Shown here: positions 21,636 to 26,542 of the stretch, one piece after another
Numbering within the stretch: the first letter of the stretch is position 1
Layout: each line of letters opens with the position of its first letter
From: a virus
Direction: 5' to 3' (one strand)
Length of the DNA: 29,127 bases
Virus record (IMG/VR): IMGVR_UViG_3300046411_000544
Span: 1 to 29,127 of that record
The notes under the pieces: model-generated
Told to the model about the DNA's origin: nothing
Seen by the model: only the letters and a program-made list of their open reading frames with translations
Databases searched by the model: none
Made by a program: the position numbers and the translations under genes

Positions 21636-22025
21636 ATGAAAACGCTTCTAACTCTTCCAATGATCAAGCGTCTAGTTGTGAGTGGTGCCGTCATTTCGGC
21701 AGCTGCATTGGCATCGCCTGTACTCGCAGGTCCTTACGTCAACGTTGAGAACAACGCCGGTTTTACTGGCGCTGACTTCAACGGTTCAGTAACTGATGCT
21801 CATGTTGGTTACGAAGGTGGCGACGGCGTTTATGGCTTCTACGTGCAGGGTGGTCCTGCTTTTGTCCAGCCTGATGGTGATGACGGCGAATTTGAGCTGT
21901 CTGGCAAGATCGGCGGAAGCGTCCAAGCTACTGAGCAGTTTGGTGCTTACGGCGAAATCAGTTTCATGACTGGCGATGACGACGCTTCTTATGGCACCAA
22001 AGTTGGCGTCAAGTACAACTTTTGA
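21636..22025 (+). CDS. Small outer-membrane beta-barrel-like protein with signal peptide
   Basis: A 129-residue protein; an in-frame ATG at 21660 gives 121 residues and a more usual signal peptide (MIKRLVVSGAVISAAALASP then VLA before GPYV). The mature part, about 100 residues, is a run of amphipathic beta strands separated by Asp/Gly turns: PYVNVENNAGFTG, SVTDAHVGYEG, VYGFYVQGGPAF, FELSGKIGGSVQAT, FGAYGEISFM, and the final TKVGVKYNF. The last strand alternates hydrophobic residues and ends in Phe, like the signal used by the outer-membrane insertion machinery. Six strands would make a very small barrel. It is acidic. An envelope function in the infected cyanobacterium is inferred; the true role is unknown. 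Confidence 0.65.
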   Translation: MKTLLTLPMIKRLVVSGAVISAAALASPVLAGPYVNVENNAGFTGADFNGSVTDAHVGYEGGDGVYGFYVQGGPAFVQPDGDDGEFELSGKIGGSVQATEQFGAYGEISFMTGDDDASYGTKVGVKYNF

Positions 22026-22051
22026 GCTAGTCTAGAAACAAACTAGATGCG

Positions 22052-22079
22052 CCCCCTGTCTCACACCAGGGGGTTTTTT
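22052..22079 (+). terminator. Rho-independent terminator of the late operon
   Basis: CCCCCTG (22052-22058) pairs perfectly with CAGGGGG (22067-22073) around an 8-base loop and is followed directly by six T. It lies 27 bases after the beta-barrel gene and should end the long structural transcript. The AGGGGG of the 3' arm is also the only Shine-Dalgarno-like sequence before the ATG at 22083. Confidence 0.85.
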
Positions 22080-22082
22080 ATT

Positions 22083-22319
22083 ATGCAAAAACTGTTCAAC
22101 GTCATGGCCGTGGCATCCTTCGTGATGTCTGGAACGTTAGTTGCTGGCGTCGTGGTGTTTTATTCCAACATCCCGTCGATCACCAAGCATTACATGAGCC
22201 AGCTGCAGGAAGAGCTAGGCAAGATGGTGACTGACAAGCTGCCTGTTCAGCTGGACAAGGCAATGCCAAAGCTGCCGACTAGCACCGGACCAGCTGTGCC
22301 AATCAAGTCACCATTTTAG
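22083..22319 (+). CDS. Small single-pass membrane protein of unknown function
   Basis: Starting at the ATG at 22083 gives 78 residues. A longer start at 22047 would run through the terminator hairpin and is unlikely. Residues 1-26 form one hydrophobic helix (FNVMAVASFVMSGTLVAGVV), followed by an amphipathic stretch (KHYMSQLQEELGKMVTDKLP) and a Pro-rich end with TSTGPAVPIKSPF. I recall similar small proteins ending in TGPAVP in marine cyanophages, but have no function to offer. A holin or envelope anchor is possible. It directly follows the terminator and its 3' end overlaps the convergent minus-strand gene by 17 bases. Confidence 0.65.
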   Translation: MQKLFNVMAVASFVMSGTLVAGVVVFYSNIPSITKHYMSQLQEELGKMVTDKLPVQLDKAMPKLPTSTGPAVPIKSPF

Positions 22320-22620
22320 TTTGAGCGGTTGGATCATCGTCATGAGCTTCAGGTCCGAAACCTTCAGCCTTGATCCGTTCAGTCAAGTGCGGTTCTGGCG
22401 CGGGTGCTTGCGATTTCTGCTCAAACGACGTCAGCCACTCTCGTAGCGCATCACCTGTTGGCGTACCTTTTGGCCATTTAACGTGCCGCAAGATCATTTT
22501 ATGATCAGTGAAGAGGCGAGAGGATCTGCCACTGAGTACGGTGTAGCTAATTTCAGGTCCTTCACGTCTACGGGTACGTTCAATCCAAAGCTGACCCGCA
22601 ACAAACCGCTCTGCCTTCAT
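22303..22620 (-). CDS. Conserved small phage protein of unknown function
   Basis: The ATG at 22620 gives 105 residues: KAERFVAGQLWIERTRRREG, PEISYTVLSGRSSRLFTDHK, LRHVKWPKGTPTGDALREWL and an acidic, Pro-rich end. The protein has ordinary amino-acid composition with two Trp and a folded-looking N-terminal two thirds. I have the impression of related proteins in cyanophages, which is why I accept it as a gene on the minus strand. Its start codon shares the palindrome CATG with the plus-strand gene starting at 22619, and its end overlaps the plus-strand gene at 22083-22319. A longer start at 22686 would lie deep inside the opposite gene. Function unknown. Confidence 0.6.
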   Translation of the reverse strand: MKAERFVAGQLWIERTRRREGPEISYTVLSGRSSRLFTDHKMILRHVKWPKGTPTGDALREWLTSFEQKSQAPAPEPHLTERIKAEGFGPEAHDDDPTAQTKMVT

Positions 22621-23380
22621 GCCAGAAATCCCTGAGATTGGTATTGGTGCGGTGCAAGTACGAGAAATTCCGACTTGGCGTAGCATCCCTCCTCAGAGTA
22701 TCCCGGTTCAACCACCTGTCACGTTGCAGCTTGGTCTGCCGATCATCGATATGCCGGGTTGCGTTGAGACTCGCAATACACAGCCTGGAAACGAAAAAGC
22801 GTATGACACGGATCCCAAAGGGAATCTTGTCGTATGTGACGGAACGATGCCGTCGTACAAGCCGTTGGACTTTACGCCTGGAACGTTGACGTATGGTTCC
22901 GCGAAGCCACCAACGCAAATAGAACAACCGCCAAAAAAATCGGCTGGTAAGCAAAACCAGCCGAAGGGAACCTCTTCGTTGTCTAGTGGCAAGCCAGACA
23001 TATCAAACCTACCCATAGAGCTACCGTGTCCGCCACCCGACGCAATACCTATTGGTGCGAAGAACAAGTCACAGACTGCGATTATTGTCGGCTACGAGCG
23101 TATCAACGGGATTTGCGAGGCGCAGTACGAGAAGCTAGACGTACAAGCAATTGTCAGCAACTACCTGCCTGGTGCGCCTGTGGTGATGACGACAGCAGCC
23201 ATTGCCGCAACTGCCACCACGTCTGCAATTGTGGCCAAGCCGTTAGGTGATCTTGTGTTGAAGGTCGTCAAGCCTCTGGTCAAAAAGACCATCAAAAAAA
23301 TTAAGGCGAAGCTTGGGAAGAAGATTGTTCCTGAGTCTGTTGCTGAGCGTCGGAAGTTTCAGCGGGCTCTCCGTAAGTGA
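22619..23380 (+). CDS. Proline-rich protein with C-terminal hydrophobic segment (unknown)
   Basis: A 253-residue protein. The N-terminus is Pro/Ile-rich (PEIPEIGIGAVQVREIPTWR, PPQSIPVQPPV), followed by GLPIIDMPGCVE and DPKGNLVVCDGTMPSYKPLD, a linker rich in Pro, Lys and Ser, and a second conserved region (ELPCPPPDAIPIGAKN, IVGYERINGICEAQYEKLD). Near residues 188-208 is a hydrophobic stretch (VVMTTAAIAATATTSAIVA), followed by a very basic tail (KKTIKKIKAKLGKKIV). This N-terminal pattern is familiar to me from marine cyanophage genomes as a protein without known function. Membrane association or a virion role are both possible. It overlaps the minus-strand genes on either side by 2 and 80 bases. 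Confidence 0.7.
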   Translation: MPEIPEIGIGAVQVREIPTWRSIPPQSIPVQPPVTLQLGLPIIDMPGCVETRNTQPGNEKAYDTDPKGNLVVCDGTMPSYKPLDFTPGTLTYGSAKPPTQIEQPPKKSAGKQNQPKGTSSLSSGKPDISNLPIELPCPPPDAIPIGAKNKSQTAIIVGYERINGICEAQYEKLDVQAIVSNYLPGAPVVMTTAAIAATATTSAIVAKPLGDLVLKVVKPLVKKTIKKIKAKLGKKIVPESVAERRKFQRALRK

Positions 23381-24032
23381 TCGTGTGTGTATGTGGAGCG
23401 ACTACGCCTGGCGGATTGACCAAGACAACGTCAGCACATATTGATGAGTAAGGCGAGTCAGGATGGAACATGACACCGTCTTTCATAAGACCAGCACAGT
23501 TTTTTAGCCTTGCTATCTCGTAGTTAAGTCGCTTGTCAGCCAACTGGGCGTCGAGTAAAGCCACTTGCTTCTCAGCTGCTCTCCTACAGCTTCTGATGTG
23601 GGAACGGTCAAGCGGTATCGAAATTGTGGCTGTGACTCCACCGTTGATCGAGTAATTCGACTTTTGACCCGTCCTGATTGGACGATAGTAAAGGACATTG
23701 CCCGGATTATCGGGGACGCCATCTGGGACGGCATTACCTTCCGGATCAGTCGCGCCAGTAAGATCGAGAGTGTCATAAACCGGCTCTGAGTAGAATTTCT
23801 CATAAGGATTAGCCCAACTGGTTGTTGTGCTGACAAAAGGATTGATGTTGAGTGTTGCACCTTGGCAGCTAATGCCTCCACCGTATGTATTAGTAAACTG
23901 CCTGCTTGGCACAACTTGCACAGCCTGATTGGTTACACTTCCAGAACTATTCGCAACTGGTGCGGCAGTGCTACTGACCTGTGCTTGCGCTGGAGCGGCA
24001 AACAGCAGAAGCGTTGCTATGACTCGCTTCAT
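23301..24032 (-). CDS. Secreted protein of unknown function (third of exported operon)
   Basis: A 243-residue protein with a clear signal peptide (MKRVIATLLLFAAPAQAQ, probable cleavage after AQA). Conserved-looking parts are VVPSRQFTNTYGGGISCQGA, TLNINPF, YYRPIRTGQKSNYSINGGVT, the helical CRRAAEKQVALLDAQLADKR, LNYEIARLKNCAGLMKDGVM and FHPDSPYSSICADVV. Four Cys in the mature part (CQG, CRR, NCA, ICAD) could form disulfides in the periplasm. The C-terminal 25 residues are Gln/Ser-rich and probably disordered; they are encoded antisense to the end of the 22619-23380 gene. The start overlaps the upstream stop as ATGA, so it is coupled to the preceding secreted-protein gene. Confidence 0.72.
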   Translation of the reverse strand: MKRVIATLLLFAAPAQAQVSSTAAPVANSSGSVTNQAVQVVPSRQFTNTYGGGISCQGATLNINPFVSTTTSWANPYEKFYSEPVYDTLDLTGATDPEGNAVPDGVPDNPGNVLYYRPIRTGQKSNYSINGGVTATISIPLDRSHIRSCRRAAEKQVALLDAQLADKRLNYEIARLKNCAGLMKDGVMFHPDSPYSSICADVVLVNPPGVVAPHTHTITYGEPAETSDAQQQTQEQSSSQASP

Positions 24033-24448
24033 TGGGTAAAGGTGCTTGTCGTCTCCGTTATAGATTCAATATCTGTATCGCGGTTGATGAGTGTATGGTT
24101 CACAAGACCTGGCCCCATCAACGTCTCAACAAACTGCATGGCCTCACCTTGATTGACGATAGTCCAGGTAGGTTTGCTAGCAGGGTCAACGCTTGTCCAC
24201 TTGCTCGTCACGCCATCTAGCGTATTAGTGGTATGGGTCAGGTTCATTGGAGCGATAGGACCACTAGGCTCAATGTTTGTACCTGACACGGTGTATTCAT
24301 AACCAGTGCGGTACTCGTAAGAGTTTATGACTTCAGTGACTTTAGTCTTGGTGGTTGTGGTACTGGATAGAACGCCTTGATTGAAGTTAGGCACAACTGG
24401 AACGGCTGCTGCTGGGGCGGCAATCAACAGCAGAAGTAATAACATCAC
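24029..24448 (-). CDS. Secreted protein of unknown function (second of exported operon)
   Basis: The 139-residue product starts with a very leucine-rich signal peptide (MMLLLLLLIAAPAAAVPVVP). The start may be the GTG at 24448 or the adjacent ATG at 24445; neither has a visible ribosome site, but the upstream gene ends at 24449, so re-initiation is likely. The mature part is Thr-rich and beta-prone (NFNQGVLSSTTTTKTKVTEV, INSYEYRTGYEYTVSGTNIE) with a conserved-looking EAMQFVETLMGPGLVNHTLI and NRDTDIESITETTSTFTQ. No enzyme motif is seen. It is presumably exported with its two neighbours to the periplasm or beyond. Confidence 0.7.
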   Translation of the reverse strand: MMLLLLLLIAAPAAAVPVVPNFNQGVLSSTTTTKTKVTEVINSYEYRTGYEYTVSGTNIEPSGPIAPMNLTHTTNTLDGVTSKWTSVDPASKPTWTIVNQGEAMQFVETLMGPGLVNHTLINRDTDIESITETTSTFTQ

Positions 24449-24943
24449 TTAGCGAATACTTAGTTCTTGAATAACCTGTCCGATTACAGATGTACCTGCA
24501 CCACCGGCTGTAATCGAGATAGCACCGTCAGTTGCAATCGTGCCTGCCAGCGTTCCGGCGACTCCACCCGAAGTAGTTGTCGTGTTACCAAAAACTGGGA
24601 GTGCTGGAACTACTCCGGCGGTGACTGTTGTTGAGAGGACTGCTGGCGTATTGTCTCCTCCTGTATAGCTTTCGCTGTATGAAAAAGCATCACCAGCAGT
24701 AGTGATGCTGTAAGCACCAGGAGTATAACCAAGGGCAGTCCCCGGAGTAAGGGTGCCAAGAGTAGGAGCAGTGCCCAAAGTGACGTTAGAGCCAGATACC
24801 GCCATAGAAGACGGTTGTCTAATCGCAACGGATCCTGCGCCATCAACCGACAATGAAACGCTTGACTGAATTTTATGCGTTATGTCAGCGTGAGCTGGAG
24901 CGGCGAGCAGGCTAGCCGTTAGCAGCAGGAGTGCCTTCTTCAT
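24449..24943 (-). CDS. Secreted Gly/Thr-rich protein of unknown function (first of exported operon)
   Basis: A 164-residue protein with a textbook signal peptide (MKKALLLLTASLLAAPAHAD, cleavage after AHA). The mature part starts ITHKIQSSVSLSVDGAGSVA and is dominated by Gly, Ser, Thr and Val in a strand-and-turn pattern (MAVSGSNVTLGTAPTLGTLT, SITTAGDAFSYSESYTGG, GGVAGTLAGTIATDGAISIT), with no Cys. It ends VIGQVIQELSIR. Such composition fits an extended beta structure. The ATG overlaps the stop of the two-helix membrane protein as ATGA. I recall cyanophage proteins of this kind but no function. Confidence 0.72.
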   Translation of the reverse strand: MKKALLLLTASLLAAPAHADITHKIQSSVSLSVDGAGSVAIRQPSSMAVSGSNVTLGTAPTLGTLTPGTALGYTPGAYSITTAGDAFSYSESYTGGDNTPAVLSTTVTAGVVPALPVFGNTTTTSGGVAGTLAGTIATDGAISITAGGAGTSVIGQVIQELSIR

Positions 24944-25212
24944 TGGATTCCGGCTTTTGTATCTTTGTTATCAATGATAGGCGGTTTCTTGTTGCCATTT
25001 CCGTTGCCGTTGGATTTGCGCTCGATACCAAAGGACGCCATAGCTCCAGTCAGGAGAGACGCGACGAACGTATTGTCCATCTTCATCTGCGGGAAAAAGC
25101 CAAGATATGAGACGGTTAAGAGTGTGGCGCTCCAAAGAAGCACCATGCACTTAACGATGTCCGCGATGGATACGCCTTCCTTTTCTTCGTGTTCGTCGAT
25201 GTTGGAAGCCAT
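24940..25212 (-). CDS. Two-helix small membrane protein (holin-like, uncertain)
   Basis: A 90-residue protein with an acidic N-terminus (ASNIDEHEEKEGVSIADIVK), a first transmembrane helix (CMVLLWSATLLTVSYLGFFP), a short loop and a second more amphipathic helix (FVASLLTGAMASFGIE), then a polar NG-repeat tail (NGNGNGNKKPPIIDNKDTKA). Two close helices and a hydrophilic C-terminus fit small class II holins, but also many accessory membrane proteins. It heads the minus-strand operon of secreted proteins and lies back-to-back with a plus-strand operon containing a peptidase. A holin role would make sense in either context and is not proven. Confidence 0.65.
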   Translation of the reverse strand: MASNIDEHEEKEGVSIADIVKCMVLLWSATLLTVSYLGFFPQMKMDNTFVASLLTGAMASFGIERKSNGNGNGNKKPPIIDNKDTKAGIQ

Positions 25213-25225
25213 GGCATGACAGAGC

Positions 25226-25240
25226 TACGCTTATAGCGTA
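25226..25240. promoter_or_regulatory. Perfect inverted repeat in a divergent promoter region
   Basis: TACGCT TAT AGCGTA is a perfect 6-base inverted repeat with a 3-base centre in the 44-bp spacer between the divergent operons starting at 25212 (minus) and 25257 (plus). Its core gives TATAAG on the minus strand, close to a -10 box, but no good -35 is seen in either direction. An operator or shared promoter element is a reasonable guess. Confidence 0.35.
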
Positions 25241-25256: not shown

Positions 25257-25430
25257 ATGCTTTTCCTCATTCGACCGGTTCTGTTCAAGTTTTTGCAGTC
25301 AAAGGGTGTGAAGAACTTAGTTGTTGAGCTGCTGGAGGCATACTGCAAGTCAACAGACAACACGGTTGATGACCAAGTCGTGGAATTTGTCAAGCACAAT
25401 CTATTTCCAACCACCAGAGTTGAGAAATGA
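25257..25430 (+). CDS. Small conserved protein, 57 residues, unknown function
   Basis: Starting with the ATG at 25257, this gene encodes 57 residues: MLFLIRPVLFKFLQSKGVKN, then LVVELLEAYCKSTDNTVDDQ and VVEFVKHNLFPTTRVEK. The N-terminal half is amphipathic and hydrophobic, the C-terminal half is helical and acidic-to-neutral. I have the impression of similar small proteins (with a 'TDNTVDD' core) in marine cyanophages. It is the first gene of the plus-strand accessory operon, and its TGA overlaps the next ATG (ATGA), which supports its being a real gene. It might be a membrane-peripheral protein; the function is unknown. Confidence 0.7.
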   Translation: MLFLIRPVLFKFLQSKGVKNLVVELLEAYCKSTDNTVDDQVVEFVKHNLFPTTRVEK

Positions 25431-25579
25431 TACCTAGAAAAAATCCAACGCTACTAGCGGTTGCTGGGTTCTTTCTAATTGGCAGCGGACTTGTGCTTAT
25501 AATTTTTGGTACGGGAACGCTGTTTTACATGGGATATTACGCTGGCAAAAGCACTTGTCCTCAGGCAGTATTGAAGTGA
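25427..25579 (+). CDS. Small single-pass membrane protein, 50 residues
   Basis: The ATG at 25427 overlaps the previous stop (ATGA) and the TGA at 25577-25579 overlaps the following GTG (GTGA). The 50 residues begin with MIPRKNPTLLAVAG and contain a long hydrophobic helix (FFLIGSGLVLIIFGTGTLFY), then MGYYAGKSTCPQAVLK. The short positive N-terminus and single helix fit a small inner-membrane protein such as a holin, antiholin or spanin-like helper. Being locked between two genes by 4-base overlaps is good evidence that it is translated, though no family is recognisable. Confidence 0.7.
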   Translation: MIPRKNPTLLAVAGFFLIGSGLVLIIFGTGTLFYMGYYAGKSTCPQAVLK

Positions 25580-26274
25580 TCTGGCTGCTTCTTGCTGTGG
25601 CCCTCGCATTACTACCCTTTTTTCAGTTTTTCCGTGGTACGCCCCACCAGTTGGCTGCTGTTAAACAGCTTGAGGAGTCCTTGCCAGAAAGCGTATTGGA
25701 TGAAGATGCAGAGTGGTTTGAAGCCTGGCGGGCGAGCGGCATTGAACAACAAGTGTGGGCTCCCTACTACCACCAGCTCGACAACAAAACAGGACGCGGA
25801 TACAGGGAGTGCTTTTCTAGCGCGGCGGCTATGGTCGCGGCTTTCTACGGCAGGGTCAGCAGCGATGACTACTACAACAAGATTCGCGAGACAATTGGTG
25901 ATACGACTTCAGTCAACGCGCAGGTGACAGCCTTGCAAGTGTTGGGGTTAGACGCTGACTTCGTAAAAAACGCTGACTCCGACTTGATTGAGGAGGAGAT
26001 CACGGCAGGCAGACCTGTTTTGGTGGGATGGCTGCATAAAGGTGACTTGCTGCAAGGGCATCCTCCTATGGGCACAGGCCACTGGAGTGTGGTCGTGGGT
26101 TTTAATCAAGATGAATTTATACTTCATGATCCGATGGGCTTTCCCCTTATGGAAAGAGGCGGTCATGACATCAGGAAATCAGGCGAATATGTCCGTGTCA
26201 GTCGTCCTGCCTTTCATCAGCGCTGGCAAGTTGAGGGTCCTTTCTCAGGCTGGGCAATCGTAGTTAATGACTGA
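25576..26274 (+). CDS. Membrane-anchored C39-like cysteine peptidase
   Basis: I choose the GTG at 25576, which overlaps the previous stop, giving 232 residues; a TTG at 25555 would add 7. An N-terminal hydrophobic helix (IWLLLAVALALLPFFQFFRG) is followed by a charged linker, then a papain-like C39 fold: YRECFSSAAAMVAAFYGR carries Cys79, GHWSVVVGFNQDEFILHDPM carries His169 and Asp185. These are the residues of the C39/Peptidase_C39_2 catalytic triad; the Gln of the oxyanion hole is not obvious. The helix could be a signal anchor that puts the enzyme in the periplasm. C39-like enzymes cut peptides or peptidoglycan cross-links, so a lysis role is plausible. No other endolysin is seen in the window. 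Confidence 0.78.
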   Translation: MIWLLLAVALALLPFFQFFRGTPHQLAAVKQLEESLPESVLDEDAEWFEAWRASGIEQQVWAPYYHQLDNKTGRGYRECFSSAAAMVAAFYGRVSSDDYYNKIRETIGDTTSVNAQVTALQVLGLDADFVKNADSDLIEEEITAGRPVLVGWLHKGDLLQGHPPMGTGHWSVVVGFNQDEFILHDPMGFPLMERGGHDIRKSGEYVRVSRPAFHQRWQVEGPFSGWAIVVND

Positions 26275-26542
26275 TCTGTACTGGTTATGGGCTTTCGCTA
26301 AAGCGTTTTTTACCACTGTCGTCGTGGGCTGTGCTCAGCCAGTGAACTGGGAACACTGCTATCCAGTTAGCGACTGGATGATTCCTTGGATGCATGACGT
26401 GATTCACATGCATGAGAATGGTGCTTACCATGCGGAGAAATGTACGCTGCAAGAGTCGATGCATGTTCATGGCAGCGACGCATCCCTGCATAGTCAACGC
26501 ACCAAACCAATTGACCGTCTTGCTGCATCTGATGCAAACTAA
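26267..26542 (+). CDS. His/Cys/Met-rich small protein of unknown function
   Basis: A 91-residue protein starting at 26267, overlapping the peptidase end by 8 bases. It has a hydrophobic N-terminus (LYWLWAFAKAFFTTVVVGCA) that could be a lipoprotein-like or uncleaved signal (VVVGCA resembles a lipobox), followed by an unusual region with many His, Cys and Met residues: VNWEHCYPVSDWMIPWMHDV, IHMHENGAYHAEKCTLQESM, HVHGSDASLH. Such content suggests metal binding. It ends just before the convergent terminator. The antisense strand also has an open frame here, but operon position favours this one. Function unknown. Confidence 0.55.
   Translation: MTDLYWLWAFAKAFFTTVVVGCAQPVNWEHCYPVSDWMIPWMHDVIHMHENGAYHAEKCTLQESMHVHGSDASLHSQRTKPIDRLAASDAN

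What the first reader, a model, noticed from the sequence alone, without database searches (positions are those of the whole stretch)
23301..25212. Coupled operon for a membrane protein and three exported proteins
Four minus-strand genes are joined by ATGA overlaps (24940-24943, 24029-24032) or abut exactly (24448/24449). Three consecutive products have clear signal peptides, none has an enzyme motif, and the first gene encodes a two-helix membrane protein. Such a dedicated export set is not part of a normal virion or lysis module and may form a periplasmic or surface assembly. It is the best candidate here for an undescribed system, especially with the nearby barrel protein.
Basis: partly seen in the sequence, partly recalled or inferred. 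Interest (0 to 1): 0.62.

Follow-up and report, generated by a model that had tools for sequence, protein, structure and literature searches.

The report
Late envelope-targeted gene cassette of cyanophages
Four linked genes in a marine cyanophage, with three neighbours, encode proteins aimed at the host's cell envelope; the set was first noted in 2010, recurs in phages with all three tail types, appears to be switched on late, and may be how these phages break out of photosynthetic bacteria, which has not been tested.

Summary
Four minus-strand genes, A (90 aa, two membrane helices), B (164), C (139) and D (243), lie at 24940-25212, 24449-24943, 24029-24448 and 23301-24032; B, C and D have Sec-type signal peptides. 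The ATGA overlaps are conserved (A/B 98/98, C/D 104/105 related loci). It is not undescribed: A, B, D and the convergent gene E (22619-23380) belong to the cyanomyovirus cluster T4-GC 218/219/234/235/237, published in 2010 as five hypothetical proteins beside a 'plasmid stability' gene.

New here: (1) the set spans myoviruses, T7-like podoviruses and siphoviruses, whose virions are unrelated, so it is unlikely to be a virion part. (2) B and C are paralogues. (3) All seven linked products are membrane-borne, exported or outer-membrane proteins. (4) In T4-like cyanophages the B-C-D operon carries a late promoter about as often as virion genes do; early/middle genes almost never do. (5) In P-SSP7, E-A-C-D lies between tail fibre and small terminase, where T7 keeps its holin.

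Best guess: a late envelope-breaching (lysis/egress) module without lipoprotein spanins, confidence 0.45. Superinfection exclusion is the main rival. Function is untested.

The parts
24940..25212 (-). Gene A, 90 aa, two predicted membrane helices, charged N and C termini (hairpin, N-in/C-in inferred); T4-GC 218 / DUF6450; holin-like topology only
   Evidence: ORF; Pfam PF20048 8.7e-15; phrog_21865 1.6e-20; hydropathy; homologous to P-SSM7 GC218
24449..24943 (-). Gene B, 164 aa, Sec signal peptide, T4-GC 237 / phrog_564; paralogue of C
   Evidence: phrog_564 1.1e-38; hhalign to C 96% probability, E 3e-9
24029..24448 (-). Gene C, 139 aa, Sec signal peptide; T4-GC 236 / DUF6322 / phrog_650; AF2 model: two 23-24-residue strands around a small beta head
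   Evidence: PF19847 4.3e-36; AF2 pLDDT 83.8, pTM 0.43
23301..24032 (-). Gene D, 243 aa, Sec signal peptide, four invariant Cys (56,149,179,199), beta strands then a 42-residue helix; T4-GC 235 / phrog_848
   Evidence: phrog_848 2.9e-90; AF2; Cys
22619..23380 (+). Gene E, 253 aa, Pro-rich N-terminal domain with four conserved Cys, one C-terminal membrane helix, Lys-rich tail; T4-GC 234 / phrog_570; convergent with D, 80-nt overlap
   Evidence: phrog_570 4.6e-63; topology; Cys; convergent D in 78/78 window-type loci and convergent E in 72/72 myovirus-type loci
22047..22319 (+). Gene P, labelled 'plasmid stability' in PHROGs and GenBank; here a small bitopic membrane protein with a short Pro-rich tail (conserved start MQK, about 22083)
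   Evidence: phrog_568 7.1e-17; hydrophobic N-terminal segment in 140/140 homologues; in 57/57 window-type loci with room
21636..22025 (+). Gene O, 129 aa outer-membrane beta-barrel with signal peptide, linked in window-type loci; placed after the tail fibre gene
   Evidence: PF24653 Phage_OMP 1.9e-41; 50/50 window-type loci with room
25555..26274 (+). C39-like cysteine peptidase with N-terminal hydrophobic anchor, PHROG 'endolysin'; next to A in 40/40 window-type loci with room
   Evidence: phrog_10051 2.2e-60; PF13529 3.3e-9
25220..25240 (-). Single-copy inverted repeat TACGC-TATAA-GCGTA plus GCTCTG just upstream of A; candidate promoter/operator
   Evidence: 1 match in window, 0 in 100 shuffles; relaxed motif once in each of 20 loci, upstream of A where checked

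Best explanation
The four genes are the minus-strand half of a conserved cyanophage cassette (A, B, C, D convergent with P and E; core E-A-C-D) whose products all go to the host cell envelope and are made late in infection. Most likely it breaches the picocyanobacterial envelope so that progeny can leave. Proposed working: A oligomerises in the inner membrane as a holin-like hairpin; E and P are inner-membrane proteins with domains in the periplasm; D and the paralogues B and C are exported through Sec and assemble in the periplasm or outer membrane (C has the long beta-hairpin shape of proteins that form tall beta-barrel rings), so that the inner and outer membranes are opened together, alongside the neighbouring C39 'endolysin'. 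Shown: gene set, coupling, co-occurrence, signal-peptide-like N termini, membrane helices, conserved cysteines, late-promoter motif in T4-like relatives. Inferred: assembly, holin activity, membrane opening, lysis.
For: Every linked product is envelope-directed. Late control: CTAAATA/ATAAATA upstream of B in 28 and 18 of 59 non-redundant cyanomyovirus loci against 2 and 4 in shuffles, mostly 20-39 nt from the start, and CTAAATA upstream of A in 15/32; one of the two precedes 26/37 late virion genes but only 1/33 early/middle genes; NATAAATA is a reported cyanomyovirus late promoter (PMC2984593). Same set in T4-like, T7-like and siphovirus genomes, whose virions are unrelated. In P-SSP7 E-A-C-D sits between tail fibre and small terminase, the T7 gene 17.5 holin position (recalled, not tested here); Syn5, lacking the set, has there a membrane-helix plus coiled-coil-like protein, gp47. 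PHROG endolysin next to A. No holin or spanin family among ten small P-SSP7 proteins. In S-SM1, a virion-proteomics phage, the genes are called hypothetical while other unknowns are called virion structural.
Against: No sequence or fold match to any holin, spanin or pore protein; C's likenesses (lysenin, phi29 collar, CDTb stems) are Z about 4 and may mean only a common arrangement. D has no PDB match. None of B, C, D has a lipobox, so this is no canonical spanin pair. In myoviruses the cassette lies by regA/hsp20/DNA polymerase, not by an endolysin. S-PM2 and Syn5 lyse hosts without it. Seven envelope proteins are many for lysis alone. Late timing is inferred from motifs; no transcriptome table for these genes could be read.
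Confidence: 0.45

Rival explanations
1. Superinfection exclusion or surface remodelling: the exported proteins and the barrel protein occupy the periplasm and outer membrane of the infected cell and block adsorption or DNA entry of competing phages.
For: Small inner-membrane protein plus exported and outer-membrane proteins fit known exclusion strategies (T4 Imm is a small membrane protein; lambda Lom is a barrel behind the tail gene: recalled, not tested). The set is confined to phages of the same hosts, and T4-like relatives lack the T4 r genes tied to superinfection and lysis inhibition (PMC2984593).
Against: Exclusion genes are usually early; here the promoter motif is of the late class. 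PADLOC finds nothing (though it lists host defences). The set is near-universal rather than varied as in an arms race.
Confidence: 0.25
2. Virion or entry proteins: exported and assembled onto progeny at release, or carried in the virion for envelope passage at entry.
For: Late promoters as for virion genes; the long beta-hairpin of C resembles collar and tail proteins as much as pores; in P-SSP7 the genes follow tail fibre genes.
Against: The set is shared by three unrelated virion types; cleavable Sec signals are unusual for cytoplasmically assembled virions; not labelled as detected in S-SM1; the A homologue of S-CREM2 (gp131) is missing from its virion table between detected gp130 and gp132.
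Confidence: 0.1
3. A physiological module: an envelope complex for nutrient uptake or for keeping the host envelope working while photosynthesis fuels the infection.
For: In some cyanomyoviruses it lies near pstS/phoA or psbA/psbD.
Against: No transporter, binding-protein or enzyme family in any member; no host homologue found: genome hits are mostly contigs carrying the phage cassette.
Confidence: 0.1
4. A mobile gene cassette kept going by its 'plasmid stability' protein, as proposed in 2010, with hypothetical cargo.
For: Position varies between genomes, and T7-like, T4-like and siphovirus versions exist.
Against: The 'plasmid stability' protein is a one-helix membrane protein with a short Pro-rich tail in 140/140 homologues, not a nuclease or partition protein; order and coupling are conserved as in a functional unit.
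Confidence: 0.03

Closest known systems
Cyanomyovirus cluster T4-GC 218/219/234/235/237 plus 'plasmid stability' (Sullivan et al. 2010, PMC3037559)
   Same: Same families A=218, E=234, D=235, B=237 (and C=236, annotated in S-SM1 and S-ShM2), E convergent with D, P alongside
   Different: In the window A heads the D-C-B operon with ATGA coupling, T4-GC 219 has no room between P and E, an outer-membrane barrel gene is linked, and the phage is a siphovirus
Prochlorococcus siphovirus MED4-184 CPAG_00006-00011
   Same: Same order and strands P, E >< D, C, B, A
   Different: Strongly diverged proteins (D on a branch of 4.1 changes per column); all but the 'plasmid stability' gene annotated hypothetical
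P-SSP7 genes 042-045 (E-A-C-D)
   Same: Homologues of E (2.7e-17), A, C and D
   Different: Collinear, no B, between tail fibre and small terminase genes
Holin-endolysin-spanin lysis cassettes (lambda S-R-Rz/Rz1, T7 17.5/18.5/18.7)
   Same: Late, inner-membrane hairpin protein, envelope proteins, neighbouring peptidase-type endolysin; T7-like position in P-SSP7
   Different: No sequence homology, no lipoprotein partner, three soluble exported proteins, N-out Pro-rich anchor protein E

Membership tests
Cyanophage T4-GC 218/234/235/237 cassette | Members of T4-GC 218, 234, 235 and 237 together | tested here: met
   Homologues matched to S-SM1 and P-SSM7 genes carrying these GC numbers
Cyanophage T4-GC 218/234/235/237 cassette | GC 234 convergent with GC 235 | tested here: met
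   E >< D in the window and in 78/78 + 72/72 loci with room
Cyanophage T4-GC 218/234/235/237 cassette | 'Plasmid stability' gene alongside | tested here: met
   phrog_568 7.1e-17
Cyanophage T4-GC 218/234/235/237 cassette | GC 219 (about 190-210 aa) between P and E | tested here: inconclusive
   Only 300 bases separate P and E in the window; GC 219 was not sought elsewhere and the record is a fragment
Holin-endolysin-spanin lysis cassette | Small inner-membrane protein with 1-3 helices acting as holin | tested here: inconclusive
   A has two hydrophobic segments; activity and homology not shown
Holin-endolysin-spanin lysis cassette | Endolysin adjacent | tested here: met
   phrog_10051 endolysin at 25555-26274, 40/40 window-type loci; not adjacent in cyanomyoviruses
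Holin-endolysin-spanin lysis cassette | o-spanin lipoprotein (lipobox) | tested here: not met
   No lipobox in any B, C or D homologue
Virion structural proteins | Detected in purified virions | tested here: inconclusive
   Indirect: S-SM1 labels and the S-CREM2 table for A only
Beta-barrel pore-forming proteins | Fold match to a known pore protein | tested here: inconclusive
   C model: best Z 4.1, rmsd 4.7, 48 residues, to lysenin pore; no Foldseek hit below 1e-3
Superinfection exclusion systems | Blocks secondary infection when expressed | not testable with these tools
   Needs an infection experiment

The most novel reading that the evidence does not exclude
The cassette is a previously unrecognised, lipoprotein-free machine that opens the cyanobacterial envelope from the inside: holin-like A, membrane-anchored E and P, and exported D with ring-forming B/C paralogues, replacing holin and spanins in most marine cyanophages whatever their tail type.
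Probability: 0.28. Interest if true: 0.82.

Novelty: new member of a known kind. Interest (0 to 1): 0.5.

Why it matters
Phages of Prochlorococcus and Synechococcus are among the most abundant viruses known, yet how they break the cyanobacterial envelope has not been established as far as could be found here. A late, envelope-only gene set shared by unrelated cyanophages is a concrete, testable candidate for that step, or for a shared exclusion system. It also corrects a label: the 'plasmid stability' protein, from which cassette mobility and pseudolysogeny have been argued in print, looks like a small membrane protein.

Tried and rejected
Profile comparison of D with C: not significant (15.8%). 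A B+C read-through fusion for one structure job was dropped because MAFFT placed C homologues on B, which itself supports paralogy. Foldseek and VIA-align for D: no meaningful PDB match; BFVD gives mainly cyanophage homologues at significant scores. PDB sequence search: nothing for D; four marginal hits (0.001-0.006, WRAP-T entries) for C, not taken as real. Host-chromosome origin: 16 genome hits, mostly contigs carrying the phage cassette. Classing window-type loci as siphovirus or podovirus from 6-kb flanks failed because flanks share fibre genes. A sigma-70-type promoter before A: 0 of 36. Rfam: nothing. Syn9 and P-SSP7 transcriptome papers are not held and the P-HM2 table is in a supplement that could not be read. 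I first took the window phage for a podovirus; tape-measure and lambda-type minor tail genes show a siphovirus.

Full report
What is in the window. The record is a 29,127-base IMG/VR virus fragment. Its plus-strand genes include a tape measure protein, lambda-type minor tail and tail assembly proteins and fibre genes, so it is a siphovirus; the same arrangement of the cassette also exists in the isolated Prochlorococcus siphovirus MED4-184. I call them A (24940-25212), B (24449-24943), C (24029-24448) and D (23301-24032). Gene E (22619-23380, plus) runs into D and overlaps it by 80 nt; P (22047-22319) and O (21636-22025) precede E.

The gene set is real and conserved. Of 80 loci fetched only because they encode E, the neighbours were found wherever the contig reached far enough: D 78/78, C 77/77, B 74/75, A 68/68, P 57/57, O 50/50 and the C39 peptidase 40/40, on the expected strand where strand was scored. 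The ATGA overlap is kept in 98/98 (A/B) and 104/105 (C/D) window-type loci. Loci fetched through D in myovirus-type contigs show E 72/72 convergent, C 59/59, B 53/53, and A 47/58 on the E strand. tblastn finds D in 461, A in 458, C in 412, E in 372 and B in 213 phage records, all cyanophages or unnamed marine and uncultured phages. Many of these are near-identical isolates, so the numbers are not independent.

Three layouts. (i) T4-like: A, P, (GC 219), E, then D-C-B on the other strand. (ii) Window type: O, P, E, then D-C-B-A on the other strand, in this siphovirus and in the T7-like MedDCM-OCT-S37-C6; MED4-184 keeps the P, E >< D-C-B-A part. (iii) P-SSP7 type: E-A-C-D collinear without B (P-SSP7 genes 042-045, E match 2.7e-17). 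The core is therefore E-A-C-D. On a D tree the T7-like MedDCM copy falls among window-type copies, which suggests exchange between unrelated phages; its branch is long, so this is tentative.

All products point to the envelope. B, C and D have Sec-type N termini without lipobox. D has four invariant cysteines and E four conserved ones (100, 100, 80 and 99%), all on the N-terminal side of E's single membrane helix; with a net charge of +11 after the helix this suggests that E's Pro-rich domain is periplasmic. P, though named 'plasmid stability', has an N-terminal membrane helix and a short Pro-rich tail in all 140 homologues examined. O is a Pfam Phage_OMP barrel. The GC 219 proteins of myoviruses also begin with a hydrophobic helix and end in a glycine-rich hydrophobic region (read by eye).

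Folds. B and C are paralogues (hhalign 96%, E 3e-9; MAFFT places C homologues on B); the hhalign stretch includes the signal peptides, so the inference leans also on the shared SGSNV...AFSYSES-type core. C is predicted with pLDDT 83.8 but pTM 0.43: two strands of 23-24 residues around a small beta head. Its likenesses are long hairpins of oligomeric barrels (lysenin, CDTb, phi29 collar, flagellar MS ring) at Z about 4 or less: a shape, not a relationship. D is predicted as beta strands plus a 42-residue helix, pTM 0.40, and has no PDB match.

Timing. T4-like cyanophages use NATAAATA late promoters (PMC2984593). De novo word counts upstream of B recover CTAAATA (28/59) and ATAAATA (18/59), against 2.0 and 4.0 in shuffles, mostly 20-39 nt from the start; CTAAATA also precedes A in 15/32. 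As control, one or the other precedes 26/37 late virion genes but only 1/33 early or middle genes. So both arms appear to be late in T4-like phages. In window-type phages a single-copy inverted repeat lies directly upstream of A; its meaning is open.

Not a virion part, probably. The same set serves three unrelated virion types. In S-SM1, whose virion was analysed by mass spectrometry (PMC3037559), the cassette genes are annotated hypothetical while other unknown genes are annotated virion structural. The S-CREM2 virion table lists the products either side of its A homologue gp131, not gp131 itself. This is indirect.

Mechanism. Late, envelope-directed, shared by phages of the same hosts whatever their tail, and in P-SSP7 placed between tail fibre and small terminase, where T7 keeps gene 17.5 (the T7 layout is from general knowledge): I read this as an envelope-breaching module (0.45). 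Syn5, which lacks the set, carries there gp47, with an N-terminal hydrophobic helix and coiled-coil-like rest, and gp48. Against it: no homology to any lysis protein, no lipoprotein, and in myoviruses no neighbouring endolysin. Superinfection exclusion (0.25) is the chief rival.

Known or new. The cluster was published in 2010 as five hypothetical proteins, often with a plasmid stability protein, in 15 of 16 cyanomyoviruses and hypothesised to be clustered for functional reasons (PMC3037559). S-PM2, the published exception, lacks A-E here too. New, as far as I could find, are the link across three virion types, the E-A-C-D core in P-SSP7, the B/C paralogy, the late-promoter evidence, the membrane nature of the 'plasmid stability' protein and the conserved coupling. 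A search for the Pfam and PHROG names of the families found no paper; subscription papers are not held, so prior functional work cannot be excluded.

Noticed in passing
window 25220-25240 (-): Inverted repeat TACGCTATAAGCGTA followed by GCTCTG, once in the window; a relaxed form occurs once in each of 20 related loci, directly upstream of gene A where checked.
   Followed up: partly
window 25257-25430 (+): 57-aa gene (phrog_2738) divergent from A; look-alikes by eye are MED4-184 CPAG_00012 and Syn5 gp48, the latter also next to the fibre-terminase junction.
   Followed up: no
window 26267-26542 (+): 91-aa protein (phrog_703) after the C39 peptidase with a lipobox-like VVGC after a hydrophobic stretch; possible lipoprotein.
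   Followed up: no
window 22047-22319 (+): 'Plasmid stability' proteins of cyanophages (phrog_568) look like small bitopic membrane proteins; published arguments on cassette mobility and pseudolysogeny rest on that label.
   Followed up: partly
L127 (NZ_RMVE01000006.1), L121-L124, L126, L131-L133, L135: Contigs filed under Bacteroidota, Gammaproteobacteria, Euryarchaeota and Neomarinimicrobiota genomes carry cyanophage cassettes: probably misbinned or contaminating phage contigs, including in the assembly of a named strain (Nonlabens xiamenensis 1Q3).
   Followed up: no
L220:17535-20230 (S-PM2 p156-p161): S-PM2, which lacks the cassette, has a lysozyme-like fragment, an RlpA-like exported protein and a lipobox lipoprotein beside its C39 peptidase: a possible alternative lysis set (read by eye).
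   Followed up: no
L223:46180-46374 (S-CREM2 gp131): Homologue of gene A (1e-11) between tail gene gp130 and adaptor gp132 in a phage where B-E were not found in the stretches searched.
   Followed up: partly
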